From Candidatus Poribacteria bacterium (GTDB taxonomy: Bacteria; Poribacteria; DTPJ01; WJIO01): 11,981 nucleotides of DNA. Shown here piece after piece: positions 206 to 11,981 of the stretch; positions within the stretch are counted from its first letter, which is position 1; the number at the start of each line of letters is the position of its first letter. The notes under the pieces were generated by a model, which had not been told where the DNA came from, did not search any database, and was given only the letters and a program-made list of their open reading frames with translations. The stretch spans positions 1 to 11,981 of the forward strand of contig WJIO01000121.1 of assembly GCA_014730235.1 (NCBI GenBank). The letters run 5' to 3'. Made by a program: the position numbers and the translations under genes.

Positions 206-1150
206 ATGCTAAAAACAGAAAGAAGATATGTTAAGGACTTCATAGTCGCGGTTTGCATTCTGTTTGCCATTTCGTTTGCTTGTGCTATATCAATCGCCGA
301 TGAAATAGGCACAGAAGATGCCGCATTTTTGAAAATTGATGCCGCGTCCAGACCTGCTGCAATGGGCGGGGCTTTTGTAGGTGTTGCCAACGATGTAAAC
401 TCTGTATTCTGGAATCCAGCCGGTCTGACCCAGACGGAAAAGCGGGAATTAAGTGCCATGTATAACTCATGGTTTGCCGGTATAAACTACGGTTCCGGGG
501 CTTATTCCCAGCGGATAGGCAACGCCGCTGTTGGTCTCAGCGTTATTTACTTACAGTCCGAAATCCAGAGAAGAACTGACGACACAGAAGAAGCCGACAG
601 CACCTTTAACGCCTATTCTATGGCAGCGGGAATTTCAGGTAGCTATGCCTTAATACCGAAGGTGTTTTCCCTGGGCGGTACAGTGAAACTTATAGATCAG
701 GATTTTGACGTGGAAGATTCAAACGGCACAGCCCTTGATCTGGGAGGTATGTTCCATATATCAAAGCTGAATATAGGCGGAAGCGTCCAGAATATAAAGC
801 TGCACAGCAGTCTTGATGATGGAAGCCTGCCATTAGGCATAAGAGCCGGGATTTCCTATCCCTTTGTCAGCGAAGGTATTATCGCCGCTGAGTTCTCAAA
901 ACAGGGTGCGGCTGATGCTACATACCATATTGGCGTGGAAAAATGGTTTAAGAAGATACTGGCAATGAGGCTTGGATACTGCCTGGGTTCCGGTGACAAT
1001 CCAAAAGAAGGTTTCTCTTTAGGTCTTGGTCTTAAAGCCTACGGCACAAAACCCATGGAGAATATGAACTTCCAGTTTGATTATGCCTACGTGCCGGAAT
1101 GGGATGGTCTTGGAGATACCCACCGTATATCTATGATGGTCAGGTTTTAG
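206..1150 (+). CDS. PorV/PorQ family outer-membrane beta-barrel protein
   Basis: A 314-residue protein with a basic start (KTERRYVKD), a hydrophobic stretch at about residues 12-28 and likely signal-peptidase cleavage near A-D at 31-32. The mature N-terminus carries the family hallmark: DAASRPAAMGGAFVGVANDV followed by N-x-V-F-W-N-P-A-G-L. The rest is alternating hydrophobic and glycine-rich strands with polar turns, ending in M-M-V-R-F, a terminal Phe typical of outer-membrane barrel insertion signals. PorV/PorQ (UPF0164-like) proteins are FadL-type barrels; in Bacteroidetes PorV shuttles type IX secretion cargo, but homologues in many lineages lacking known T9SS have no proven role. The start at 206 is supported by AGGAG at 194-198, 7 nt upstream. 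The preceding gene fragment may encode a cargo-like C-terminal domain. Family assignment is firm; function is inferred. Confidence 0.85.
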   Translation: MLKTERRYVKDFIVAVCILFAISFACAISIADEIGTEDAAFLKIDAASRPAAMGGAFVGVANDVNSVFWNPAGLTQTEKRELSAMYNSWFAGINYGSGAYSQRIGNAAVGLSVIYLQSEIQRRTDDTEEADSTFNAYSMAAGISGSYALIPKVFSLGGTVKLIDQDFDVEDSNGTALDLGGMFHISKLNIGGSVQNIKLHSSLDDGSLPLGIRAGISYPFVSEGIIAAEFSKQGAADATYHIGVEKWFKKILAMRLGYCLGSGDNPKEGFSLGLGLKAYGTKPMENMNFQFDYAYVPEWDGLGDTHRISMMVRF

Positions 1151-1182
1151 TGTGTAAATAATTTGAAAATATTTAAAGCTTA

Positions 1183-1206
1183 TCATTCCAGCGAAAGCTG
1201 GAATGA
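1183..1206. repeat. REP-like hairpin with GAAA tetraloop, TCATTCCAGC stem
   Basis: A perfect 10-bp stem TCATTCCAGC / GCTGGAATGA closes a GAAA (GNRA-type) loop in the 97-bp gap between the PorV-family gene and trpA. No T tract follows, so it is a poor classical terminator. The stem shares the CATTCC...GGAATG core with hairpins inside the mobile-element copies at 2091-2156 and 4616-4641, so it is probably another member of a dispersed palindromic repeat family. It may still stabilise or end the upstream mRNA. Confidence 0.7.
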
Positions 1207-1247
1207 ATAATTAGGAAGAACCATATAATTTTTAGAGAAATTAGAAT

Positions 1248-2055: not shown

Positions 2056-2217
2056 AACTCTTTCACAAAAAATGTGGTAAAAATAAAAAAACTTCTACAA
2101 GCCATTCCTGCTTCAAGCTTTTTAAAAAGCTTGAAGCAGGAATGGCTTGTAGAAGTGGATATGCTCTTATTTAACCAGTAGAATTTTCTTCATTTCCACA
2201 CTCAAATCGGAAGTGTC
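2056..2217. mobile_element. MITE-like element, copy C (degenerate), carrying the 66-bp palindrome
   Basis: The right end (2195-2213, minus-strand reading CTTCCGATTTGAGTGTGGA) matches the terminus of copy A at 17 of 21 positions. The left subterminal TGTGGTAAAAATAAAAAAAC (2073-2092) matches TGTGGTAAAGATAAGAAAC in copy A. The outermost left end is decayed (about 12/22 match when aligned from 2056) and no target-site duplication is visible, so outer limits are approximate. It fills the gap between the convergent stops of trpA (2051) and the agmatinase fusion (2225) and probably works as the shared transcript end. I infer an old copy of the same element as at 4569-4688 and 10844-11005. Confidence 0.6.
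2091..2156. repeat. Perfect 66-bp palindrome (33-bp arms, no spacer)
   Basis: Left arm 2091-2123 (starting ACTTCTACAAGCCATTCCTG) is the exact reverse complement of right arm 2124-2156; the centre is TTTTTAAAAA. It lies between two convergent stop codons, so in either transcript it would form a very long hairpin and could act as a bidirectional terminator. The left arm begins inside the conserved left subterminal block of the surrounding mobile element and contains CATTCCTGCTTC, also present in copy A. It therefore looks like a fold-back duplication of element sequence rather than an unrelated insertion. Confidence 0.95.
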
Positions 2218-2224
2218 AAATATA

Positions 2225-4543
2225 TTACTTCAACTTTAAGAATATGTATCCAAGGTTATATCTGCGTTCATCTTCAGGATCAAAGTATGAGTCATTATAT
2301 CTTTCTATAAGGTAATCATAGGCTTCCACAATGTCCATAAACTTCTGAGGGTATTTTTTCTTGAATTCCTCAGCTATCATGCCCGGTAATGAGAAATTAT
2401 CCAGCAATTCAACTCCCTGATAGTTTTGTTTTTCCTGAACATCCATCCACCATTGATATTCCAGCATTTTTTCATCTTCATCCCTGTAGACCAGGGGCCA
2501 GATGTAATAATCCTCCCGTATAAGAAGACCGAGACCGTCATGGAAAACATGTATGAGGTCTATGTCGTCTATCCAGTCCTGCATTACTTCAAGCAGGTAT
2601 TGGGGTATGTCCTGGGGAACTACATGATAATAAAATTCCTCTTCCCTGAGCACCATCTTTACCTTTATGCTTTTCTTATTTTCCGGCTGTAGATAATCTT
2701 CTATCTCATATCCGGTCATAAATATAAAGGGAACATTGCCGTTGGCAATGTCCATCATAACATCTTCCGTTTCCAGATCATACAGCAAAGCCATATGCTC
2801 CCAGTATATCATAAATTTCTTTCCCAGTTCAAAATCCAGAGTCTCTAACATTTCCCGAAGGGGCCCTTCGGGAAATGGCCCTTTTGCCCCTGGCCCTCCC
2901 AGTAGATATTCACAGTTGAAACCGTATACATCGCTGATCATTTTCATTGCTGATGATTTCTCTGTGCATGTTCCCCCTCTTCCTGCGATTATATTCAGTA
3001 ATGTTTCTGAAGGGTCTTTAAACCAGAGTTTATCGCCTATAAAACGTGAATATAACTCAAAATCAGCTTCCCACATTCTTTTGCCTACAGCTTTGAGAAA
3101 ACGCTTGCAGTCCTCAACTGTAGTTAGTTCCAGTATCCTGTCGGCTGATGAGCCATAAGCATCTTCCAGACATTCGTAAACAAAATTTTCAAAAACATCC
3201 TGGTTTTTCATCCACTTTCTTATGTTATAGCCGTAGGGGTTGCCTTCCTCAGTAATCTGGGAGCGATCAAGGACAATGTCCAGTAGCATAAAATCTTCTG
3301 TTTCCTGAGACCGGTAAAGCTCAAATTCCGGTTTCTGATCAAGATTCAGGATATTATCATCCTGCCTGATTATCAAACCTTCGTATAGATCAAGAAGTTG
3401 ACCGTCATCATTTATTTTATAAATGCAGTCCTGAATTACATTAAGGTTTTTTCGTGATTTTGGTTTAGGGCTGCCTGCGTCTACATTTTTAACATACTTA
3501 TCCAGCATTTCTTCTATGGAATTAAAACTGTTGGGATCGACTTTTACTGCACATTTGAACCGGTTTGGAAAATCGGTAATCTGTAATATATAGGACATAT
3601 CTTTTTCCATGACTTCAGAAACCCCTTTGTTTTTGAGTAAATTAACGCTATCATCGTATATAATTATATTATTCTCTCTTGCTTTATATATGTAACCGAT
3701 AAGTTTATAAATCAGCTTTGCCGTCAGGAAATCCGGTGCGGGATTTCCCTGCTGTGGGCTGAGTTCTACCACATCAAAACCCACTATATTCTTTTTTGCG
3801 GCAACCTGCTTCAGTAAATCAAGAGTATTATCCCACATCAAGCCACCGGGTTCAGGTGTTCCAGTAGAAGGCATGATTGACGGATCAAAGGCATCCACGT
3901 CTAATGTTATATAGACGTTTTCAGTCAGTTTTTCGATTACCTTATCTATCCAGTTGTCTTTAATATCCTGCATAAAAAATACCGGCAGTTTTTCCTTTTG
4001 AATAAATATTTTCTCAGGATATGACAAACTGCGGATTCCTACCTGAACGGCTGGACAATGTTCCAGAATTCTTCTTATAGAGCAGGCATGGTTATACTTG
4101 CTTCCCATATATTGATCCCGCAGATCGGCATGAGCATCGAGTTGCAAAACTGAAAGAGAACTGTATTTATCGGCGAATGCAGCTACTGCTCCGGGTGTAA
4201 CAGAATGTTCCCCACCTAAAATAATTATAAGCTTTTTGCTGTTCAGTAGCTTTTTAGTCGCTTTATATACATGCTGGAATATGTCGTCAATCTGAGTGGA
4301 TCTTAATTCTGGTAGGGTAATAAATCCCCATACGTGAGGTTCGCAATCCAATTCTTCGCTGTAGAATTCCACGTGTTTTGATGCTTCAATAATGGCTTTT
4401 GGGCCTTTTGCTGTTCCCCGGCCGTATGTTACAGTTGCTTCATAAGGAACCGGGATTATTATTACGTTTGCATGGCTGAGACGGGTGTTTCTGATCCCCA
4501 TGAACGTTGAAGTTATAGAGCGTTTTATGAAGTGGTTGATCAA
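2225..4543 (-). CDS. Agmatinase (ureohydrolase) fused to a C-terminal NAT/transglutaminase-like cysteine-enzyme domain
   Basis: Residues about 24-288 form a full arginase-fold domain. All six metal ligands are visible: H113 in GGEHS, D136/H138/D140 in DAHAD, D215/D217 in LDVDAFDPS; the agmatinase-type TGTPEPGG follows and E260 lies in VVELSPQQ. The expected reaction is agmatine to putrescine plus urea in the cytosol. Residues about 312-772 are unrelated. They include GRGGTCTEKSS (C526), EHMALLYDL (H583) and VMMDIANGNVPF (D598), matching the RGGxC...H...D pattern of arylamine N-acetyltransferases, with the NAT-typical 15-residue His-Asp spacing; Cys-His spacing is 57 instead of about 38. The substrate of this half is unknown. 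Start: TTG at 4543 has AGGA 8 nt upstream; the ATG at 4501 has no ribosome site. M312 (codon at 3610) has AAAGGGG 11 nt upstream and could be an internal start. Its 5' end faces glnA, with mobile-element copy A just upstream of its ribosome site. Confidence 0.88.
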   Translation of the reverse strand: MINHFIKRSITSTFMGIRNTRLSHANVIIIPVPYEATVTYGRGTAKGPKAIIEASKHVEFYSEELDCEPHVWGFITLPELRSTQIDDIFQHVYKATKKLLNSKKLIIILGGEHSVTPGAVAAFADKYSSLSVLQLDAHADLRDQYMGSKYNHACSIRRILEHCPAVQVGIRSLSYPEKIFIQKEKLPVFFMQDIKDNWIDKVIEKLTENVYITLDVDAFDPSIMPSTGTPEPGGLMWDNTLDLLKQVAAKKNIVGFDVVELSPQQGNPAPDFLTAKLIYKLIGYIYKARENNIIIYDDSVNLLKNKGVSEVMEKDMSYILQITDFPNRFKCAVKVDPNSFNSIEEMLDKYVKNVDAGSPKPKSRKNLNVIQDCIYKINDDGQLLDLYEGLIIRQDDNILNLDQKPEFELYRSQETEDFMLLDIVLDRSQITEEGNPYGYNIRKWMKNQDVFENFVYECLEDAYGSSADRILELTTVEDCKRFLKAVGKRMWEADFELYSRFIGDKLWFKDPSETLLNIIAGRGGTCTEKSSAMKMISDVYGFNCEYLLGGPGAKGPFPEGPLREMLETLDFELGKKFMIYWEHMALLYDLETEDVMMDIANGNVPFIFMTGYEIEDYLQPENKKSIKVKMVLREEEFYYHVVPQDIPQYLLEVMQDWIDDIDLIHVFHDGLGLLIREDYYIWPLVYRDEDEKMLEYQWWMDVQEKQNYQGVELLDNFSLPGMIAEEFKKKYPQKFMDIVEAYDYLIERYNDSYFDPEDERRYNLGYIFLKLK
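2849..2877. repeat. 29-nt palindrome inside the coding sequence of the fusion gene
   Basis: CATTTCCCGAAGGG (2849-2862) and CCCTTCGGGAAATG (2864-2877) are perfect 14-bp inverted arms around one G. The stretch codes for G-P-F-P-E-G-P-L-R-E-M (around residues 555-565) between the putative catalytic Cys526 and His583, just where this protein's spacing exceeds that of typical NAT enzymes. Such a long palindrome is unusual in a gene and may mark a palindromic repeat inserted in frame. Confidence 0.85.
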
Positions 4544-4568
4544 TTCTATTTTCCTGTTGAAAGTTTTG

Positions 4569-4688
4569 ATTCTTCCGGGTTTAGTGTGGTAAAGATAAGA
4601 AACTTCTTTATGCTGTCATTCCTGCTTCCGCGGGAATGACAAGCTGAGAGCATTTTCAATTATTACCACACTAAACCCGGAAGAATCA
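4569..4688. mobile_element. MITE-like element, copy A, with 8-bp target-site duplication
   Basis: A 120-bp element with perfect 25-bp terminal inverted repeats. The left one begins GATTCTTCCGGGTTTAGTG and the right one ends in its exact complement. It is flanked by a perfect direct repeat AAAGTTTT (4561-4568 and 4689-4696), an 8-bp target-site duplication. No coding capacity. The centre holds an 11-bp hairpin (4616-4641, GTCATTCC...GGAATGAC) closed by a TTCC loop. Bases 4581-4621 match copy B at 37 of 41 positions. The element lies between the ribosome site of the minus-strand agmatinase fusion and the divergent region toward glnA, so it separates that gene from any promoter further upstream. 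Families with 8-bp duplications (ISL3, IS66, IS256, IS1595 among others) are candidate donors of transposase; ISL3 is my guess from the end sequence, unverified. Confidence 0.85.
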
Positions 4689-4745
4689 AAGTTTTTAAAT
4701 CATGAGTAGGAAATTCATGCTATAAAACACTTTATTATAATTATT

Positions 4746-4807
4746 TTACCATATTTCATTATTTTTGTTTACATAGATTTTACATAACTGATAAAACTAT
4801 TTTACAT
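4746..4807 (+). promoter_or_regulatory. Helically phased TTTACAT repeats upstream of glnA (candidate response-regulator site)
   Basis: TTTACAT occurs at 4769-4775, 4780-4786 and 4801-4807, spaced 11 and 21 bp, i.e. on one face of the helix. A related TTTACCA starts at 4746, 23 bp before the first. Hexamers TTTACA separated by 5 bp resemble the direct-repeat sites bound by OmpR/PhoB-family regulators such as B. subtilis PhoP. It lies about 140-200 bp before glnA and could serve glnA or the divergent agmatinase fusion. The regulator is unknown; chance in AT-rich DNA is possible. Confidence 0.4.
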
Positions 4808-4843
4808 TGATGATATAGAGACGTAACAATTATGATGTATAAT
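4801..4843 (+). promoter_or_regulatory. Candidate sigma-70-type promoter(s) for glnA
   Basis: The AT-rich stretch offers overlapping possibilities: TTGATG (4807-4812) with TATGAT (4831-4836) at an 18-bp spacer, TTTACA (4801-4806) with TAACAA (4824-4829) at 17 bp, and a TATAAT at 4838-4843 without a clear -35 box. Any of them gives a leader of roughly 100 nt before the glnA start. The choice cannot be made from sequence alone. Confidence 0.35.
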
Positions 4844-4893
4844 TATAACCGAAAACAGAAGTCAAGCAAGATTGCTAGTCTTTTAGCGAAGCA

Positions 4894-4914
4894 GGCATTT
4901 TTCAGAAAAATGCT
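4894..4914 (+). promoter_or_regulatory. Leader hairpin before glnA
   Basis: GCATTTTT (4895-4902), loop CAG, AAAAATGC (4906-4913) form an 8-bp stem followed by TTTATTA, 16 nt before the glnA ribosome site (AGAGGAG, 4929-4935). Smaller complementary pairs lie just upstream (AGCAA/TTGCT at 4864-4875). It could be a weak attenuator or an mRNA-stability element. I do not recognise a known glutamine riboswitch class here. Confidence 0.35.
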
Positions 4915-4944
4915 TTATTAACTATTTGAGAGGAGTAAAAGAGA

Positions 4945-6276
4945 ATGGAAGTCAAAGACAAGAAATACATTCTTGAGATGGTAAAGAAGCACGATGTTAA
5001 GTTTATAAGACTATGGTTTACAGATATACTTGGTTACCTGAAGAGTTTTGCTATTACTGTTGAGGAACTTGAAGGTGCACTTGATGAAGGTATGGGTTTT
5101 GACGGATCATCCATACAGGGTTTTGCCAGAATTGATGAAAGTGATATGATGGCTATGCCCGATCCCAGCACTTTCCAACTTCTTCCCTGGAGACCAAGAG
5201 AACACAGCGCTGTTGCCAGAATGTTCTGTGACATTGTAGAACCCGATGGCACTCCATATGTAGGCGATCCCAGAAGAGTTCTAAAGGATATGCTGAAGAA
5301 GGCCTCTGATATGGGCTATTCTTTCTACGTGGGGCCGGAGCTTGAATACTTCTACTTCAAAAACGATCAGGGAACAGAAGTTCTAGATCATGGTGGTTAC
5401 TTCGACCTGATTCCATCGGATGTTGCAACTGACCTGCGTAGAGAAACAGTCCTTATGCTGGAAGCCATGGGAATCCAGGTGGAATACAGCCATCATGAGG
5501 TGGCTCCCAGTCAGCATGAAATTGATATGCGTTATACTGATGCCTTGACAATGGCTGATAACGTTATGACTTACCGCCTGGTAGTCAAGGAAGTTGCCCT
5601 TAAAAACGGTGTATATGCTACTTTTATGCCCAAACCGATATTTGGTGAAAACGGCAGTGGTATGCACACACATCAGTCATTATTTAAAGGCGACAAGAAC
5701 GCTTTCTTTGATAAGGAAGACCCACATCATCTGTCAGCAACGGCAAAGGGCTATATAGCTGGACTTTTGGAGCATGCCCCTGAAATCACACTGGTAACTA
5801 ACCAGTGGGTGAATTCATACAAGCGTTTGGTGCCGGGATATGAAGCTCCTGTTTATATATCATGGGCGATGCGTAACAGGTCAGACCTGATAAGAGTTCC
5901 TCTTTATAAACCGGGACAGGAAAAGGCTACCAGGGTTGAATATAGATCACCCGATCCGGCCTGTAATCCATATCTGGCCTTTTCATTGATGCTGGCCGCT
6001 GGTCTGGAAGGTATCGAGAAAGGATATGAGCTAAGGGCTCCGGTAGAGGAAAACGTTTATGAAATGTCAGAAGAGGAGAGGGCAAACAGAGGTATTGATA
6101 CTCTCCCACCCGATCTTTATGAAGCTATTCTGGCTACAGAAAAAAGCGAACTGGTAAGGAAAACCCTTGGTGACCATATATTCAATAAATTGATTGAAAA
6201 CAAGATAATTGAATGGAACAGGTATCGAGTTCAGGTTACTCAATACGAACTGGATGAATATCTACCGCTACTGTAA
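4945..6276 (+). CDS. glnA: Glutamine synthetase, type I (GSI-alpha)
   Basis: Cytosolic dodecameric enzyme joining ammonium to glutamate with ATP. All core segments are visible: FDGSSIQGFARIDESDM, GPELEYF (E132, E134), HHEVAPSQHE (E185, E192), GENGSGMHTHQS (H241/H243), the flap Glu E300 in LVPGYEAP, and RVEYRSPDPACNPYLAF. Length 443, against about 470 for the beta class, and the tail NVYEMSEEER...GIDTLP closely follow the Bacillus/Clostridium alpha class. Arg62 in GFARIDES sits at the position of B. subtilis Arg62, which mediates glutamine feedback inhibition. Alpha-class enzymes are generally not adenylylated, so control is expected through feedback and possibly protein partners; a Tyr (Y372) is present near the adenylylation position, but in alpha-type context. 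AGAGGAG lies 9 nt before the ATG. It heads the ammonium-assimilation module, 264 nt before amt1. Confidence 0.97.
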   Translation: MEVKDKKYILEMVKKHDVKFIRLWFTDILGYLKSFAITVEELEGALDEGMGFDGSSIQGFARIDESDMMAMPDPSTFQLLPWRPREHSAVARMFCDIVEPDGTPYVGDPRRVLKDMLKKASDMGYSFYVGPELEYFYFKNDQGTEVLDHGGYFDLIPSDVATDLRRETVLMLEAMGIQVEYSHHEVAPSQHEIDMRYTDALTMADNVMTYRLVVKEVALKNGVYATFMPKPIFGENGSGMHTHQSLFKGDKNAFFDKEDPHHLSATAKGYIAGLLEHAPEITLVTNQWVNSYKRLVPGYEAPVYISWAMRNRSDLIRVPLYKPGQEKATRVEYRSPDPACNPYLAFSLMLAAGLEGIEKGYELRAPVEENVYEMSEEERANRGIDTLPPDLYEAILATEKSELVRKTLGDHIFNKLIENKIIEWNRYRVQVTQYELDEYLPLL

Positions 6277-6300
6277 GGAATTGATTTCCTGAAGTAAAAA

Positions 6301-6453
6301 TTCTGTGCAGAAGTCACAAATGTCCTGGAAGGCGAATCTTCTGCACAGAAGAATGGCTAATCTCTGGTATTGAAACCAGAGGTGTTCTTATGGGTTTTTA
6401 GCCAGCAGATTGCTGCAACAATCTGTTATAAATAATTCTTGCCTAAAACCCAC
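6301..6453 (+). promoter_or_regulatory. Structured intergenic region between glnA and amt1 (three consecutive hairpins)
   Basis: The 264-nt gap holds, in order: a 13-bp perfect stem TTCTGTGCAGAAG (6301-6313) / CTTCTGCACAGAA (6338-6350) with a 24-nt loop; a 7-bp stem CTCTGGT (6362-6368) / ACCAGAG (6375-6381); and a nested structure in which TGGGTTTT (6391-6398) pairs with AAAACCCA (6445-6452) around an inner 7-bp hairpin CAGATTG (6406-6412) / CAATCTG (6419-6425). No strong T tract follows any stem. It may be the glnA 3' end, an amt1 leader RNA, or a processing site between the two. The last 85 nt before amt1 show only AAAGGA (6528-6533) as a ribosome site and TATTAT-like boxes. Confidence 0.55.
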
Positions 6454-6540
6454 AATTTGTCAATAGTAATTTTCCAGCCATACCCTTAAGCGGAAGATTC
6501 ATCCGTATCAGACTATTATAGTCAAAGAAAGGATAATTAC

Positions 6541-7905
6541 ATGAGGCGCGTTTTAATCACAACGGCCGCAGTTCTGATACTGGTGTTTCTAACTACTAAT
6601 CTATTTGCCGATGATGCAACTACGTCATCAAACTCCAGAGCCATTGATACAGTCTGGATGCTCCTGGCAGCTTTTCTTGTGTTCTTCATGCAGGCTGGCT
6701 TTGCCATGGTAGAAGCAGGATTCACAAGAGCTAAAAACGCCTGTAACATTATCATGAAAAACCTTATGGACTTTTCAATAGGTTCATTAGCATACTGGGC
6801 TCTGGGATTTGGCATAATGTTTGGCGCAAGCAAAGCCGGTTTGTTTGGCAGTGATGGATTTTTCCTGTCAGCGGGAGATCCCAGTACTGGCGATGGATTA
6901 TGGCAGATAGCTTTTTGGCTGTTCCAGGCTGTATTTGCCGCAACGGCTGCTACAATCGTTTCAGGCGCTATGGCCGAGAGGACAAAATTCTCCGGTTACC
7001 TGGCATACAGCGCGGTTATTACAATACTAATATATCCTGTTGTAGGTCACTGGATATGGGGCGGCGGATGGTTATCCAAACTGGGTATGATAGACTTTGC
7101 AGGCTCAACAGTTGTCCACTCTGTTGGTGGATGGGCTGGCCTGATGGGGGCTATTGTGCTGGGGCCTCGAGTTGGAAAATATATCGACAATAATGGTGGG
7201 AAAAAAATATCTAAAGCTATCCCTGGACATAATATCCCACTAGCTGCTTTAGGTGTCTTCATCCTCTGGTTCGGTTGGTTTGGCTTCAATCCCGGTAGTA
7301 CAACTTCCGGAACAAACCTGAGCATCGCCACCATCGCAGTAACGACAAATCTGGCAGCGGCGGCTGGCGCTATAAGTGCCATGTTTACGGCATGGATACG
7401 ATACAAGAAACCTGATGCCAGTATGTCCCTCAACGGTGCATTAGCCGGACTTGTGGCTATTACCGCTCCTTGCGCAGTTGTATCTCCATTAAGCGCTGTT
7501 ATTATAGGCCTTATTGGTGGAATACTGGTTGTCCTGGCCGTTGATTTCTTTGACAAGATTCTGCATATTGACGACCCTGTTGGCGCTGTATCGGTTCATG
7601 GTGTATGCGGGATGTTTGGAACTCTGGCCGTTGGCTTGTTTGCCGAATCCCGCTATGCACAGGCAGCAGGTCTTGGCGATGTAAACGGTTTATTCTTCGG
7701 TGGCGGGGCAAAGCTGCTGGGTGTGCAGGCATTAGGAGCAATATCTGTGCTTGCCTGGGTTTCGGTTACTGCCTTGATTATGTTTCTGATCATAAAGAAA
7801 ACCATTGGACTACGGGTATCCCGGGAAGAGGAACTTCGAGGACTGGATATTGAAGAACACGGTATGGAAGCATACTCCGGGTTCCAGATATTTACGAACC
7901 AATAA
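6541..7905 (+). CDS. amt: Ammonium transporter, Amt family (first copy)
   Basis: A 454-residue inner-membrane channel for ammonium. Residues 1-23 are a cleavable signal peptide ([10 protein letters not shown]..., cleavage near LFA-DD), normal for Amt proteins with a periplasmic N-terminus. Eleven membrane segments follow. The pore histidine pair is present: H193 in [13 protein letters not shown] and H353 in [14 protein letters not shown]. Other family blocks are [52 protein letters not shown] and [14 protein letters not shown]. The C-terminal tail [19 protein letters not shown], ending in AYSGFQ, is the cytosolic region through which AmtB-type trimers contact PII. The PII gene glnK1 starts 14 nt after the stop, and a paralogous amt-glnK pair lies downstream. 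Ribosome site AAAGGA is 7 nt before the ATG. Confidence 0.97.
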
Positions 7906-7919
7906 AGGAGACACTGAAA

Positions 7920-8261
7920 ATGAAACTTATCATCGCATACATCCAACCGGAAAAGCTTAACGATGTAAAGCAGGAACTTTACAAGGCTGAGATATACAAG
8001 ATGTCAGTAACAAACGCCATGGGATGTGGTCAGCAGAAAGGCTATCACGAATCATATCGTGGCGTTGATATAGAAGTAAACCTGCTTAAAAAGATTCGTC
8101 TGGAAATTGCCGTCAACGAAGATTTTGTAGCACCGACTATAAACGCAATAATAAAGGGTGCAAGAACAGGTGAAATCGGCGACGGAAAGATATTTATCCT
8201 TGATCTTGTAGAATGTATCAGGATCAGGACAGGCGAAACTGGTAACGAAGCTATAGGATAA
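7920..8261 (+). CDS. glnK: Nitrogen regulatory protein PII (GlnK1), variant T-loop lacking Tyr51
   Basis: A 113-residue trimeric signal protein that binds ATP/ADP and 2-oxoglutarate and plugs the Amt pore. Ligand residues Q39 (GQQKG) and K58 are present, as is the C-terminal signature [12 protein letters not shown]. The T-loop reads [18 protein letters not shown]: Tyr46 is kept, but position 51, the uridylylated Tyr of enteric GlnB/GlnK, is Ile. So uridylylation at 51 is impossible and control of Amt is probably by nucleotide and 2-oxoglutarate alone. The block [17 protein letters not shown] followed by VNLLKK looks like an established PII subgroup linked to amt genes, not a decayed copy. AAGGAG (7905-7910) overlaps the amt1 stop; spacing of 14 nt indicates co-transcription and likely a dedicated partner of Amt1. 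Confidence 0.95.
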
Positions 8262-8267
8262 TAATAA

Positions 8268-8303
8268 CATTCATCCAGCCACATTCCTGTGGCTGGATGA
8301 ATG
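8268..8303. terminator. 15-bp hairpin between glnK1 and the porin gene
   Basis: CATTCATCCAGCCAC (8268-8282) and GTGGCTGGATGAATG (8289-8303) form a perfect 15-bp stem with loop ATTCCT, beginning 7 nt after the glnK1 stop. There is no T tract downstream (AAAAATA follows), so it is either a Rho-dependent or partial terminator, or an mRNA-stabilising 3' end that lets some transcription pass to the porin gene. Its right arm contains the ATG at 8297, which argues against that codon as the porin start. Confidence 0.6.
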
Positions 8304-8332
8304 AAAAATATATAGAGGAAAGGTTCAGGGAT

Positions 8333-9043
8333 ATGTATAGAGTTGGTATATTAACAGCAGCAATTTGTTTGATATTGGCTACAACTACGTTCGGTGAAAT
8401 ACCCGAAATTGAGGGATCGGCGGATATATACTTTACTGACAATTATTTCTGGAGGGCTGCCGGTGACGGCAATCCCCATCTTCAATATGATTTTGGATTA
8501 TCAACCAGCATTGCGGGATTGGGCATAAGCTTTTCCCCCTGGGTTTCTCACAACCTGGATAACATGGATGTGGATGAAGTTGACTATGCCTTTGACCTCA
8601 GCTACTCCATTTTAGAAGCATTATCAGTAAATGCTGGGGTTTTATATTACGATGTTACAGGAATAGAGGAGACAGGGGAATTTTACGGGGCGTTGGGTTA
8701 TGAAATCCCAATCTCTGAGATGCTAAGTATGTCCCCGGGTATAACCTTTTACTACGATTTTATGGAAGTAGACAAACCGTATCTTGAAGCTTCCGTCTCT
8801 GCAGGTGTGAGTGTCTTTGAGCCCCTCTCGGCTTCGCTTTCGGCTGTTATCGGGTTTGACTTCGGACAGTATGAATCAGATGATTTTGAAAATGGCCCTA
8901 CAGTTCTCCAGATAGGGGTATCGGCAGACTACCAGTTGACGGAGGTGGTCACCCTCACACCTGCCTTTACTTATGTTTTAGGCCTGGCTGATGTTTTTGA
9001 TAATGATACATTTCTCGGTGTAAACATCGGTTTTGGTTTCTAG
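8333..9043 (+). CDS. TorF-like putative porin / outer-membrane beta-barrel protein
   Basis: A 236-residue protein starting MYRVGILTAAICLILATTTFGE: a short signal peptide with likely cleavage after FG or FGE. The mature part is a run of amphipathic strands (for example LSVNAGVLYYDVTGI, YLEASVSAGVSVF) and ends in F-L-G-V-N-I-G-F-G-F, a C-terminal Phe barrel signal. The N-terminal part (GSADIYFTDNYFWRA, YDFGLSTSIAGLGISFSPWVS) resembles the TorF/Gcw_chp family of putative porins, which often lie next to amt-glnK genes; this is from memory. The expected place is the outer membrane, perhaps admitting ammonium or small nitrogenous solutes; substrate is inference. Start: GAGGAAAGG (about 8315-8323) lies 9 nt before ATG 8333; an in-frame ATG at 8297 would add 12 residues but lies inside a hairpin and has no ribosome site. 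It separates the two amt-glnK pairs. Confidence 0.75.
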   Translation: MYRVGILTAAICLILATTTFGEIPEIEGSADIYFTDNYFWRAAGDGNPHLQYDFGLSTSIAGLGISFSPWVSHNLDNMDVDEVDYAFDLSYSILEALSVNAGVLYYDVTGIEETGEFYGALGYEIPISEMLSMSPGITFYYDFMEVDKPYLEASVSAGVSVFEPLSASLSAVIGFDFGQYESDDFENGPTVLQIGVSADYQLTEVVTLTPAFTYVLGLADVFDNDTFLGVNIGFGF

Positions 9044-9079
9044 AAGTCCAACTTAAACCTCAATACTGCTACAGCAACC

Positions 9080-9104
9080 GGGGCAGATGCCCAACATCTG
9101 CCCC
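9080..9104. terminator. 10-bp GC-rich hairpin between the porin gene and amt2
   Basis: GGGGCAGATG (9080-9089) and CATCTGCCCC (9095-9104) pair perfectly around loop CCCAA, 36 nt after the porin stop and followed by TGATTTCGTGTT. Stem strength suits a terminator but the T tract is poor. GGGGCAGATG...CATCTGCCCC is also the form of dispersed palindromic repeats, so it may be a REP-type unit reused as a transcript end. Confidence 0.6.
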
Positions 9105-9140
9105 TGATTTCGTGTTAAAGAGAAATAGAGGAGGTTATGA

Positions 9141-10484
9141 ATGTCTTATAGATCATTCCGTAAAAAATCAAAATTACTAATCGCTGCCGTTATAATGTTT
9201 CTTTTAGCAGCAAGTATTGCTTTTGCGGATGAAACAGCCGCTATCGGCACACTTACAGTGGGGCTTGATACTGTATGGGTGCTGGTAGCGGCTTTTTTAG
9301 TGTTCTTTATGCAGGCCGGTTTTGGAATGGTGGAAGCCGGTTTCATAAGGGCAAAGAATACATGTAATATACTGACAAAGAATTTCCTGGATTACTGCAT
9401 GGCATCTATTGGATTTTTTATTTTTGGATACGCCATAATGTTTGGTTCTGGAAATGCTTTTATGGGCCTTAAGGGATGGTTTCTGGCTGGGGCTGAGTCA
9501 GCGGCTGATGTTCCCCTCTTTGCTTTCTGGCTATTCCAGGCGGCTTTCTGTGGGGCGGCGGCGACTATTGTTGCCGGGGGAATGGCCGGAAGGATGAAAT
9601 TCCAGGCCTATTTGATATATTCGTTTTTGATCTCCGCGCTTATATATCCAATCGTGGGTCACTGGGTATGGGGCGGCGGATGGCTTGCCAGCTTAAATTT
9701 TGCCGATTTTGCCGGTTCTACCGTTGTCCATTCTGTGGGTGGATTTGCCGCTTTGATAGGTACTATTTTTCTGAAGCCAAGAATTGGCAAATACAATCCC
9801 GATGGTTCACCAAACGCCATTCCCGGACATTCGATTCCCCTGGCTTCTCTAGGGGTTTTCATATTGTGGTTTGGATGGTTTGGATTCAACCCCGGTTCTA
9901 CACTGGGAGTAGGCGACGGCAATCTTATAGGACGCGTTGCCATAAACACAAACCTGGCGGCTGCTGCCGGGGCTATTACGGCCATGATAGCTATCTGGAT
10001 AGTATCGGGAAAACCTGACCTGTCAATGATAATGAACGGGGCCCTGGCCGGATTGGTGGCTGTAACTGCTCCATGTGCTTTTGTTGATCCCTGGGCGGCT
10101 ATTGTTATTGGCGCGGTTGGCGGAGTAATTGTAGTCTTTGGCGTTATAATGCTGGACAAATTCAGGATTGACGATCCCGTAGGTGCTGTACCTGTGCATG
10201 GATTAAACGGTATATGGGGAACCATTTCCATCGGTCTTTTTGGTCGAAAAAATCTGGCTTTGGCAAATGACGGGCTTTTTTACGGCGGTGGTTTTAAGCA
10301 GCTTGGGGTGCAATTTCTCGGAGTAATTTCAGTGGTTGCATTTGTCCTTGTGACTATGGGGATTATATTTAAGATAATTGATGTTACAGTAGGATTGAGG
10401 GTTACACCCCAGGAAGAAATGGAAGGATTGGACACTGGTGAGCATGGTTTACAGGCATATTCTGGTTTCCAGATACAGGAATAA
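9141..10484 (+). CDS. amt: Ammonium transporter, Amt family (second copy)
   Basis: A 447-residue paralogue of the upstream Amt. The basic N-terminus MSYRSFRKKSK plus a hydrophobic stretch ending SIAFAD is a signal peptide. The pore histidines are H197 ([13 protein letters not shown]) and H353 (DDPVGAVPVHGLNG); [43 protein letters not shown] and [14 protein letters not shown] are conserved, and the PII-contact tail is GLRVTPQEEMEGLDTGEHG ending in AYSGFQ. One deviation: the segment that reads MAERTKF in the first copy and usually carries an acidic residue is MAGRMKF here (Glu to Gly near residue 150). AGGAGG is 6 nt before the ATG, stronger than for amt1. glnK2 begins 12 nt after its stop. Full length and intact, so probably a functional second channel with different affinity or regulation. 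Confidence 0.96.
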   Translation: MSYRSFRKKSKLLIAAVIMFLLAASIAFADETAAIGTLTVGLDTVWVLVAAFLVFFMQAGFGMVEAGFIRAKNTCNILTKNFLDYCMASIGFFIFGYAIMFGSGNAFMGLKGWFLAGAESAADVPLFAFWLFQAAFCGAAATIVAGGMAGRMKFQAYLIYSFLISALIYPIVGHWVWGGGWLASLNFADFAGSTVVHSVGGFAALIGTIFLKPRIGKYNPDGSPNAIPGHSIPLASLGVFILWFGWFGFNPGSTLGVGDGNLIGRVAINTNLAAAAGAITAMIAIWIVSGKPDLSMIMNGALAGLVAVTAPCAFVDPWAAIVIGAVGGVIVVFGVIMLDKFRIDDPVGAVPVHGLNGIWGTISIGLFGRKNLALANDGLFYGGGFKQLGVQFLGVISVVAFVLVTMGIIFKIIDVTVGLRVTPQEEMEGLDTGEHGLQAYSGFQIQE

Positions 10485-10496
10485 GGGGGAGAAAAA

Positions 10497-10835
10497 ATGA
10501 AAAAAATTGAGGCTATAATACGTCCCGAAGGGCTTACCGCCGTCAGAAATGCCCTGGAAGAGCTTGGATACCCGGGGATGACTATAACTGAGGTTAAAGG
10601 GCACGGAAAACAAAAGGGCAAAGAACAGGTATGGCGAGGCAAGGAATACAAAGTGGAATTTTTACCAAAACTGAAACTGGAAATTGTTGTAATAGACGAC
10701 GATGTCTCCAAAATTGTCCGGGCCATAATAAACGAAACCAGGACAGGAAACATCGGCGACGGAAAGATTTTCATATATCCGGTGGAAGACGCCATAAGGA
10801 TCAGGACTGGAGACTTTGGCAATAACGCCATATAA
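10497..10835 (+). CDS. glnK: Nitrogen regulatory protein PII (GlnK2), canonical T-loop with Tyr51
   Basis: A 112-residue PII trimer subunit. The T-loop VKGHGKQKGKEQVWRGKEYK keeps Tyr51, the uridylylation site of enteric PII, while position 46 is Trp instead of the usual Tyr. Q39 and K58 (2-oxoglutarate/ATP site) and the signature [12 protein letters not shown] are present. It is thus the mirror image of GlnK1, which keeps Tyr46 and lost Tyr51. Tyr51 alone does not prove uridylylation, as many PII proteins with Tyr51 are not modified. It follows amt2 with a 12-nt gap and a GGGGGAG ribosome site, so the expected role is gating Amt2. The stop codon (10833-10835) directly abuts the 8-bp target duplication of mobile-element copy B. 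Confidence 0.96.
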   Translation: MKKIEAIIRPEGLTAVRNALEELGYPGMTITEVKGHGKQKGKEQVWRGKEYKVEFLPKLKLEIVVIDDDVSKIVRAIINETRTGNIGDGKIFIYPVEDAIRIRTGDFGNNAI

Positions 10836-10843
10836 TTTTTAAT

Positions 10844-11005
10844 GGCTTTTCCGGTTTTAGTGTGGTAAAGGTAAGAGACTTTTTTATGATGTCATTAGGA
10901 TTCTTGACTTGTAGGGACACGGTATACCGTGTCCCTACAAGTGTATAAATGTTATGTCTTTTAAAAAGTGCGAAAGTATAGAACCACACTAAACTCGGGA
11001 AAGCC
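10844..11005. mobile_element. MITE-like element, copy B, with 8-bp target-site duplication
   Basis: A 162-bp element with terminal inverted repeats GGCTTTTCCGG... (10844-10866) and its complement (10983-11005), matching at 20 of 23 positions. It is flanked on both sides by TTTTTAAT (10836-10843 and 11006-11013), a perfect 8-bp target-site duplication. It carries no reading frame of note. The left subterminal block 10856-10896 matches copy A at 37 of 41 positions. The centre holds the 36-bp palindrome at 10907-10942. It occupies the gap between the convergent stops of glnK2 and the cohesin-like gene; without it the two stops would be 3 nt apart. On the + strand the end of the terminal stem is followed by TTTTT, so the element may now be the glnK2 terminator. 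Confidence 0.88.
10907..10942. repeat. Perfect 36-bp palindrome inside copy B
   Basis: Arms of 18 bp, starting ACTTGTAGGGACACGG and centred on GGTATACC, are exact complements with no spacer. The GTAGGGACACGG...CCGTGTCCCTAC form is unlike the rest of the element and looks like a separate dispersed palindrome nested in the mobile element, where copies A and C carry CATTCC-type hairpins instead. Confidence 0.9.
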
Positions 11006-11008
11006 TTT

Positions 11009-11981
11009 TTAATAAGGGAAAACCCACGTGCAGTCGTCCAGAACGTTTATCCAGCATCCATAACCGGGTTTCAGCTTATCCAGGTTGCCAATCATACCAG
11101 CGTAATACAGCCATAGCTTATTTTCGTTGTCATAGGTGTAAACGGCGGTATAAATGTCTTCTATAAGTTGCAGCGCTTCGGCATAATCCATCTCCACGTT
11201 CTGGTTATATCCCGCTAGATTCCAGCCTGTGTATAATTCCACAGAGGAGTCGTCCAGGGAATCGCCAAATACGGTAAGGGTAACATCAGCATTGACAAAT
11301 ATCAGGTAACCCCTGCCGGGAATAATTAAACTCAGGTTGTTATCACCACCGGTGTTCCCATAGATATGTCTTAACCATAGACCTGTCAGGGCATCATAAG
11401 CCCACACCGATTCCCAGAAGCCCTCTATGGGCTTAAGCAATGTTACCAAGTTGCCGGATATAGGGTCAACGTTTACCGAGATCAGGTTCCAGCCCTGGTA
11501 TAACTGGATGTCCTGCTGGATATATTCACCTTCTGGTTTGCTTTGCACTATCACAGGATTTGCCATACCCAGGTCAATGGGATTACCGTCGGGATCAACG
11601 GCAGCTATATCTGTCAGGGTAAATGCGCTGGTGATTCCCCCGTCGTTGAATTGCATCTGCACCTTTGCTATTGAACCGTAGCCGTCTACCCCATTAATGC
11701 CCTTGCGGACAATGCCTATGCTTACAGTTCCGGCATCCGGGTCTATCTGGGGTTCTAATGAGATCAGATCGTCGCCCAGCAGACCATCTGTGGCTATCTG
11801 GGCGTCAACGGCTTCAATATCCTCCGGATTTGTATACTGAAACACCAGAGATATGCCGAACAGGTTATCCACCGGATCAGCTTCACTTCCGACCTGTATG
11901 TCAACCCAGAAGGCTTCACCGGGGTCATGTAAGGGATCGGCTATGATAGACAGTCCGTTGGACGAAGATACCACAGCATCC
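11009..11981 (-). CDS. C-terminal part of a surface/secreted protein: cohesin-like domain plus two GWNL repeats, partial
   Basis: The frame is open at the right edge of the window, so the N-terminus, including any signal peptide, is missing; 323 residues are visible and the stop is TAA at 11011-11009. The first ~145 residues (VDIQVGSEADPVDNLFGISLV, then LLGDDLI, GTVSIGIVRKG, GYGSIAKVQMQF) follow the strand order of cohesin-like domains (CBM2/cohesin fold). Then come two ~79-residue repeats, each opening with LYQGWNLIS or LYTGWNLAG and continuing A/T-Y-D/T-Y-D...L-W-L, a P-G-x-G-Y/C segment and a final hydrophobic strand (VTLTVF / CTWVFPY). Such modules occur on large exported proteins; binding partner unknown (a dockerin-type partner is only a possibility). 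The strongly acidic composition fits an extracellular protein. Its stop codon lies inside the target duplication of mobile-element copy B. Confidence 0.75.
   Translation of the reverse strand, partial: DAVVSSSNGLSIIADPLHDPGEAFWVDIQVGSEADPVDNLFGISLVFQYTNPEDIEAVDAQIATDGLLGDDLISLEPQIDPDAGTVSIGIVRKGINGVDGYGSIAKVQMQFNDGGITSAFTLTDIAAVDPDGNPIDLGMANPVIVQSKPEGEYIQQDIQLYQGWNLISVNVDPISGNLVTLLKPIEGFWESVWAYDALTGLWLRHIYGNTGGDNNLSLIIPGRGYLIFVNADVTLTVFGDSLDDSSVELYTGWNLAGYNQNVEMDYAEALQLIEDIYTAVYTYDNENKLWLYYAGMIGNLDKLKPGYGCWINVLDDCTWVFPY

What the first reader, a model, noticed from the sequence alone, without database searches (positions are those of the whole stretch)
4561..11013. A MITE-like family proven by two perfect 8-bp target-site duplications
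Copies at 4569-4688 and 10844-11005 have TTCCGG-type terminal inverted repeats, a 41-bp left subterminal block identical at 37 positions, and each is flanked by its own perfect 8-bp direct repeat (AAAGTTTT and TTTTTAAT). Different duplicated targets with homologous ends is direct evidence of independent transposition. Neither copy codes for a transposase, so an element elsewhere must move them. 8-bp duplication fits families such as ISL3, IS66, IS256 or IS1595; the ends look ISL3-like to me, unverified.
Basis: partly seen in the sequence, partly recalled or inferred. Interest (0 to 1): 0.82.

Follow-up and report, generated by a model that had tools for sequence, protein, structure and literature searches.

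The report
ISL3-type mini-transposons carrying a shared hairpin
The two repeats are genuine non-coding mini-transposons, two of several hundred in this bacterium, with ends like those of a known insertion-sequence family (ISL3); most copies carry a small hairpin repeat that at least one other, unrelated mini-transposon family in the same genome also carries.

Summary
Element 1 is 4568-4687, flanked by AAAGTTTT (4560-4567, 4688-4695). Element 2 is 10844-11005, flanked by TTTTTAAT. Both belong to one family (F1) with hundreds of copies: the end pattern has 792 hits against 3 control hits. Of 121 paired copies, 50 have perfect and 27 near-perfect 8-bp target duplications (shuffles expect 0.7 and 3.3). 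Paralogous empty sites, some with long and close matches, show real insertion events. The ends resemble ISL3: annotated ISL3 elements on plasmids and ISL3 genes from the same phylum have GG(C/T)TC(T/A)TC-type ends and often 8-bp duplications; IS256 ends do not match. No intact ISL3 carrying these ends was found, so the mover is inferred.

New here: 113 of 121 copies contain a TGTC-tagged REP hairpin (CGTC-1 type, a class reported to lack a dedicated transposase). The same hairpin sits in a second mini-transposon family with different ends and 5-6-bp duplications (F2). In the fetched DNA, 183 of 188 such hairpins lie beside a mini-transposon end (4.6% of control sites do). F1/F2 hybrids exist. 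REPs inside MITEs are known (QMITE2); one REP shared by MITEs of two transposition types looks like a new variant.

The parts
4560..4567 (.). left 8-bp target-site duplication of element 1, AAAGTTTT
4568..4687 (+). F1 MITE, element 1 (120-bp class), 25-bp perfect TIRs 4568-4592 / 4663-4687
   Evidence: about 40 near-full-length copies scored in the genome
4614..4641 (.). TGTC-tagged REP hairpin TGTCATTCCTGC-TTCC-GCGGGAATGACA inside element 1
4688..4695 (.). right 8-bp target-site duplication of element 1, AAAGTTTT
10836..10843 (.). left 8-bp target-site duplication of element 2, TTTTTAAT
10844..11005 (+). F1 MITE, element 2 (162 bp), ISL3-type ends, hybrid interior
10909..10981 (+). piece of another repeat (F5) inside element 2: palindrome TTGTAGGGACACGGTATACCGTGTCCCTACAA and the F5 right end ...AAAAAGTGCGAAAGTATAG
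   Evidence: the same piece occurs elsewhere in the genome
11006..11013 (.). right 8-bp target-site duplication of element 2, TTTTTAAT
1143..1222 (+). decayed F1 copy with REP hairpin at 1183-1206; right end GGAAGAACC; the TAG stop of gene 206-1150 lies in its left end
   Evidence: no TSD found; boundaries approximate
2062..2217 (-). decayed F1 copy: right end CCACACTCAAATCGGAAGTGTC intact, left end decayed; long REP hairpin at 2102-2145
   Evidence: left boundary approximate

Best explanation
Both copies belong to a very abundant family of non-autonomous mini-transposons (F1) that spread by transposition into AT-rich intergenic DNA, duplicating 8 bp at each insertion. The transposase was most likely of the ISL3 family, acting in trans on the ends GG(C/T)TCTTCCGGGTTTAGTGTGGTAA. 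The intact transposase is not visible in this assembly and may be lost. Most copies carry a TGTC-tagged REP hairpin (CGTC-1 type) as a passenger. The REP was acquired by a roughly 90-bp REP-free ancestor, first as a head-to-head dimer (164-bp class), then trimmed by a 44-bp deletion between its internal repeats to the dominant 120-bp class. The hairpin is shared with at least one other MITE family (F2, moved with 5-6-bp duplications). Recombination at the shared core most likely makes the hybrid elements. Shown: family, ends, TSD, insertion, REP content, sharing and hybrids. Inferred: ISL3 as mover, order of REP acquisition and trimming, recombination as source of hybrids.
For: Copies. TSD statistics: (50 perfect and 27 at 7/8 of 121; no excess at 9 or 10 bp). 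Paralogous empty sites keeping one target copy. The clearest is F1 inside an F2 copy at C224:7231-7351 (TSD TCATTTTT), whose joined flanks match uninterrupted F2 copies at 92-98%. ISL3 ends: plasmid ISL3 elements mostly have GG(C/T)TCTTC-type TIRs, 6 of 10 with a perfect 8-bp TSD; the ends of 8 of 9 score at p 1e-5 to 6e-4 in the F1 end matrix, while IS256 ends do not. ISL3 genes of the same phylum have such ends directly after the transposase stop, e.g. GGTTCATCAGACTTAAGTGGGG, matrix score 18.1. REP. REP beside MITE ends 183/188 against 69/1500 control sites. F2 TSD 5-6 bp. F1/F2 hybrids, about 15, with a near-perfect 8-bp TSD in 1. Intergenic: 4 of 121 inside ORFs that cover 86% of the DNA.
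Against: No complete ISL3 element with the same ends was found in this genome or in 83 others of the phylum. The ISL3 fragment ends here agree with the MITE end for at most 9 of the first 10 bases, and C342 and C236, which hold two of the three fragments, contain no F1 ends and may be foreign. The genome is a fragmented assembly (451 contigs); some hybrids or TSD-less copies could be assembly joins. Only 1.19 Mb was read directly, partly chosen for hits; the unbiased part is 0.47 Mb. Several of the empty-site matches are short or partial.
Confidence: 0.86

Rival explanations
1. F1 is moved by another transposase family that also makes 8-bp duplications (IS256, IS66, IS1595 and others); the ISL3 resemblance is superficial.
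For: 8-bp TSDs are not unique to ISL3. An IS256 transposase copy exists in the genome, and two IS256 elements on plasmids also gave perfect 8-bp TSDs.
Against: The end of the genome's own IS256 does not match. IS256 ends on plasmids score far below ISL3 ends in the F1 end matrix. ISL3 ends start GG(C/T)TCTTC as F1 does. IS66 and IS1595 were not tested.
Confidence: 0.1
2. The REP hairpin, not the MITE, is the mobile unit: REPs inserted repeatedly into the middle of pre-existing MITEs through a RAYT-like enzyme.
For: REP-free F1 copies exist, some with perfect TSDs. One Y1 transposase gene is present. The hairpin is shared by families with different ends.
Against: The Y1 gene's contig holds no REP arms. 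183 of 188 hairpins lie by MITE ends, only 5 do not. 8-bp TSDs flank the whole MITE including the REP. CGTC REPs are reported to lack a dedicated transposase (PMC3733652).
Confidence: 0.12
3. F1 elements are maintained as functional RNA or regulatory hairpins (terminators, mRNA stabilisers), selected at their sites, with mobility a thing of the past.
For: Very stable folds (z -13 and -9); almost strictly intergenic.
Against: Perfect TSDs and varied sites show insertion; copies are enriched in divergent gaps (30 of 102 against 71 of 517) and few in convergent ones, not the pattern of terminators; no Rfam match. Not exclusive of a mobile origin.
Confidence: 0.1
4. Hybrids and shared cores are artefacts of short-read assembly across repeated hairpins.
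For: Fragmented assembly, hundreds of near-identical 28-bp cores.
Against: 77 of 121 F1 pairs have matching TSDs on both sides, so most cores were joined correctly; F2 pairs, most with a REP arm, have their own 5-6-bp TSDs, so sharing of the core does not rest on hybrids.
Confidence: 0.1

Closest known systems
ISL3-family insertion sequences (e.g. the elements on Neochlamydia pS13, Gloeothece and Nostoc plasmids)
   Same: End motif GG(C/T)TCTTC..., inverted ends, 8-bp target duplication, often AT-rich
   Different: F1 has no transposase gene, is about 50-250 bp, and its inner end (GGGTTTAGTGTGGTAA) is not identical to any ISL3 end seen here
QMITE2 of Coxiella burnetii (PMC5896051)
   Same: MITE of 150-190 bp with a REP inside, direct repeats at the sites, mostly intergenic
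   Different: Carries a GTAG REP, not a CGTC-type one, with 7-11-nt direct repeats; no sharing of the REP with a second MITE family is mentioned in the passages read
CGTC-1 REPs, including Neisseria dRS3 (PMC3733652)
   Same: CGTC/TGTC tag, 8-bp stem starting with AT, 4-nt loop, CCA tail, head-to-head dimers, high copy number
   Different: There REPs are said to be mostly not associated with other repeats; here almost every hairpin lies in a MITE. Related case: H. neapolitanus CGTC-1 dimers inside 41-bp palindromes
MITEs of other bacteria (ERIC, Nezha, MITEAba12 and others; review PMC10969869)
   Same: Short, non-coding, TIR, TSD, intergenic, moved in trans; ERIC reaches up to 711 copies
   Different: Different ends; the review has no mention of ISL3

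Membership tests
MITE | Short, non-coding, with terminal inverted repeats | tested here: met
MITE | Many dispersed copies in one genome | tested here: met
   792 end hits against 3; about 380 paired copies per genome extrapolated from the unbiased part
MITE | Target-site duplication of fixed length | tested here: met
   8 bp, no excess at 9 or 10
MITE | Empty sites exist | tested here: met
   paralogous empty sites (nested and repeated targets), some matches short; orthologous ones not testable
MITE | A partner transposase with the same ends | tested here: inconclusive
   only ISL3 fragments here; related ends next to ISL3 genes in the phylum
ISL3-derived | ISL3-type terminal repeats | tested here: met
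ISL3-derived | 8-bp target duplication | tested here: met
   the same in 6 of 10 plasmid ISL3 elements
ISL3-derived | Cut and joined by an ISL3 transposase | not testable with these tools
   needs a biochemical or cellular assay
IS256-derived | IS256-type terminal repeats | tested here: not met
IS66- or IS1595-derived | Terminal repeats of these families | not tested
   no comparison run
CGTC-1 REP (the interior hairpin) | CGTC/TGTC tag, 8-bp stem starting AT, 4-nt loop, CCA tail, head-to-head dimers | tested here: met
   sequence of the 24- and 68-bp cores against PMC3733652
CGTC-1 REP (the interior hairpin) | No flanking dedicated transposase | tested here: met
   the only Y1 gene lies on a contig without REP arms

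The most novel reading that the evidence does not exclude
CGTC-type REPs, which have no known transposase of their own, spread in this lineage as passengers of MITEs moved by at least two different transposases, and the shared hairpin lets the MITE families recombine into hybrids; this may be a general route by which transposase-less REPs multiply.
Probability: 0.45. Interest if true: 0.68.

Novelty: new variant of a known kind. Interest (0 to 1): 0.5.

Why it matters
CGTC REPs are reported from several phyla with no known way to multiply (PMC3733652). Here nearly all of them ride inside mini-transposons with at least two different sets of ends and duplication lengths, so the question how transposase-less REPs spread becomes testable. 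It also gives an ISL3-type MITE family at several hundred copies in a lineage (probably Poribacteria, by inference) for which the paper search found no MITE report, and a record of MITE families exchanging interiors.

Tried and rejected
IS256 as mover, suggested to me by the inner motif TTTAGTGTGGTAA: rejected, ends do not match. Size classes 120/141/164/185/205 as helical phasing: rejected, they are explained by REP monomer/dimer and a 21-bp insert. The first assignment of F1/F2 hybrids (44) was inflated by a lax pattern matching F1 arms; a stricter count gives 18, of which 3 are still false by inspection. Viral and plasmid collections: nothing beyond one chance-like viral hit. GTDB pattern scan: one solo end in a Campylobacterales bin, whose genome has only one other, 1-mismatch hit. 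L168 and single hits in three phylum genomes judged chance. Outward promoters: two weak symmetric matches in element 1, no evidence of function; not pursued.

Full report
What is there. The window is contig C40 of a 5.53-Mb genome in 451 contigs. It holds ordinary genes: an outer-membrane-like protein, trpA, an arginase-family gene, glnA, two ammonium transporter/P-II pairs and others. Element 1 lies between the divergent arginase-family gene and glnA; element 2 lies just behind a P-II gene. Exact coordinates: element 1 4568-4687 with AAAGTTTT at 4560-4567 and 4688-4695; element 2 10844-11005 with TTTTTAAT at 10836-10843 and 11006-11013. Two further decayed copies lie at about 1143-1222 and about 2062-2217.

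More than chance. In the own genome the query with element 1 returned about 40 near-full-length places, only 40 of 835 first-look candidates having been scored, and the end pattern gave 792 hits against 3 for the reversed pattern. I fetched 1.19 Mb in stretches; some contigs were chosen because they had hits, 0.47 Mb was taken in contig order. A matrix of the end found 341 ends and 121 left-right pairs; the shuffled control for the first 1.0 Mb gave 3 ends above the same threshold. Of the 121 pairs, 50 have perfect and 27 have 7/8 8-bp duplications; re-paired flanks give 0.69 and 3.31 and never more than 4 perfect in 1000 trials. Duplications of 9 or 10 bp show no excess. The duplicated targets are about 90% A+T. 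The unbiased part extrapolates to about 380 paired copies.

Insertion. I joined the flanks of copies with TSDs and searched the fetched DNA for uninterrupted versions. Several queries gave alignments across the junction, mostly because the MITE had landed in another repeat. The clearest is an F1 copy inside an F2 copy (C224:7231-7351, TSD TCATTTTT), whose joined flanks match many intact F2 copies, one at 98% over 51 bp. Others are short or have gaps. The orthologous empty sites of the two window copies could not be tested: only one genome of the same order is held, and it and the other relatives searched lack the family (three single hits there are at chance level).

Which transposase. Annotated ISL3 elements on plasmids were used as a yardstick: 9 of 10 gave clear inverted ends, mostly GG(C/T)TCTTC-like, and 6 of 10 a perfect 8-bp TSD. 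Scored with the F1 end matrix, the ends of 8 of 9 have p between 1e-5 and 6e-4; Bernardetia's do not. Three IS256 elements did not match, nor did the IS256 of this genome. In the phylum, ISL3 genes end directly at GGTTCATCAGACTTAAGTGGGG (G064) and GATTCATCCGACTTATGTGGG (G063). In this genome there are only three ISL3 fragments at contig ends. So ISL3-type ends are well supported; the actual mover is inferred. IS66 and IS1595 were not compared.

The interior. 113 of 121 F1 pairs carry an arm of the hairpin TGTCATTCCTGC-NNNN-GCAGGAATGACA or a longer form. It fits the published CGTC-1 REP: TGTC tag, 8-bp stem starting AT, 4-nt loop, CCA tail and head-to-head dimers. The 68-bp core is such a dimer, and the 24-bp core is what a 44-bp deletion between its ATTCCTGC repeats would leave. 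Exact cores: 272 in this genome, none in 83 others of the phylum. REP-free F1 copies of 52-91 bp exist, some with perfect TSDs. That REP-free elements came first is inference.

Sharing. The same hairpin sits between other ends. F2 (GTAATCGTTAAAAAATG) has 235 end hits against 0 and its own 5- or 6-bp duplications (11 and 7 of 29 pairs, expected 0.64 and 0.37). Rarer ends, F3 and F4, are seen a few times only. Of 188 cores, 183 have a MITE end within about 110 bp, against 69 of 1500 AT-rich control sites. About 15 F1/F2 hybrids exist; one has a near-perfect 8-bp TSD, against 77 of 121 for F1 pairs. Recombination at the shared core is the simplest reading, not shown. Element 2 is itself a mosaic: F1 ends around a piece of a further repeat, F5, with its 8-bp TSD intact, so it was probably moved as a hybrid.

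Context. Only 4 of 121 copies lie inside ORFs although ORFs of 120 aa or more cover 86% of the DNA; of those placed between genes, 65 are in tandem, 30 in divergent and 7 in convergent gaps (background 385, 71, 61). RNA folds are very stable; a role as terminator or stabiliser is possible but not supported by the divergent bias.

Known and new. ISL3 elements, MITEs, CGTC REPs and a MITE with a REP inside (QMITE2, GTAG type) are all known. In the papers and passages read I saw no report of one REP shared by MITEs of two transposition types, nor of an ISL3-type MITE; the searches were limited to open papers. The organism is probably a member of Poribacteria, from protein motifs recalled from memory, not tested.

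Limits. Fragmented assembly, partial and partly selected sampling, no close relative, no experiment.

Noticed in passing
1143-1150: The TAG stop of the outer-membrane-like gene 206-1150 lies within the left end of a decayed F1 copy, so the insertion may have set the end of the protein.
   Followed up: no
8268-8303: Perfect 16-bp hairpin CATTCATCCAGCCACA...TGTGGCTGGATGAATG with a T-rich tail on the minus strand, between a P-II gene and gene 8297-9043; terminator-like.
   Followed up: no
6299-6350: Inverted repeat TTCTGTGCAGAAG / CTTCTGCACAGAA behind glnA, before the first ammonium transporter gene.
   Followed up: no
L076 5143, L115 7642, L136 10696, L144 6242 and others: Another repeat (F5) with ends CTATACTTTCGCACTTTTT and a ...ACACGGYATRCCGTGT... 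palindrome; its right part is inside element 2.
   Followed up: partly
L080 16570, L129 19708, L137 12290: Rarer element type (F3) with ends CTGAGAATTCTAAAAAATCTCTAAAACC and TGATATTTCTAAAATTAACTAAAACC around the same REP hairpin.
   Followed up: partly
L069 (C391) 1-490: 3' end of an ISL3 transposase gene followed within about 310 bp by a second type of F1-like end; the relation between the two is unclear.
   Followed up: partly
window 2225-4543: A 772-aa gene with an arginase-family N-terminal domain and a long C-terminal part without a Pfam match.
   Followed up: no
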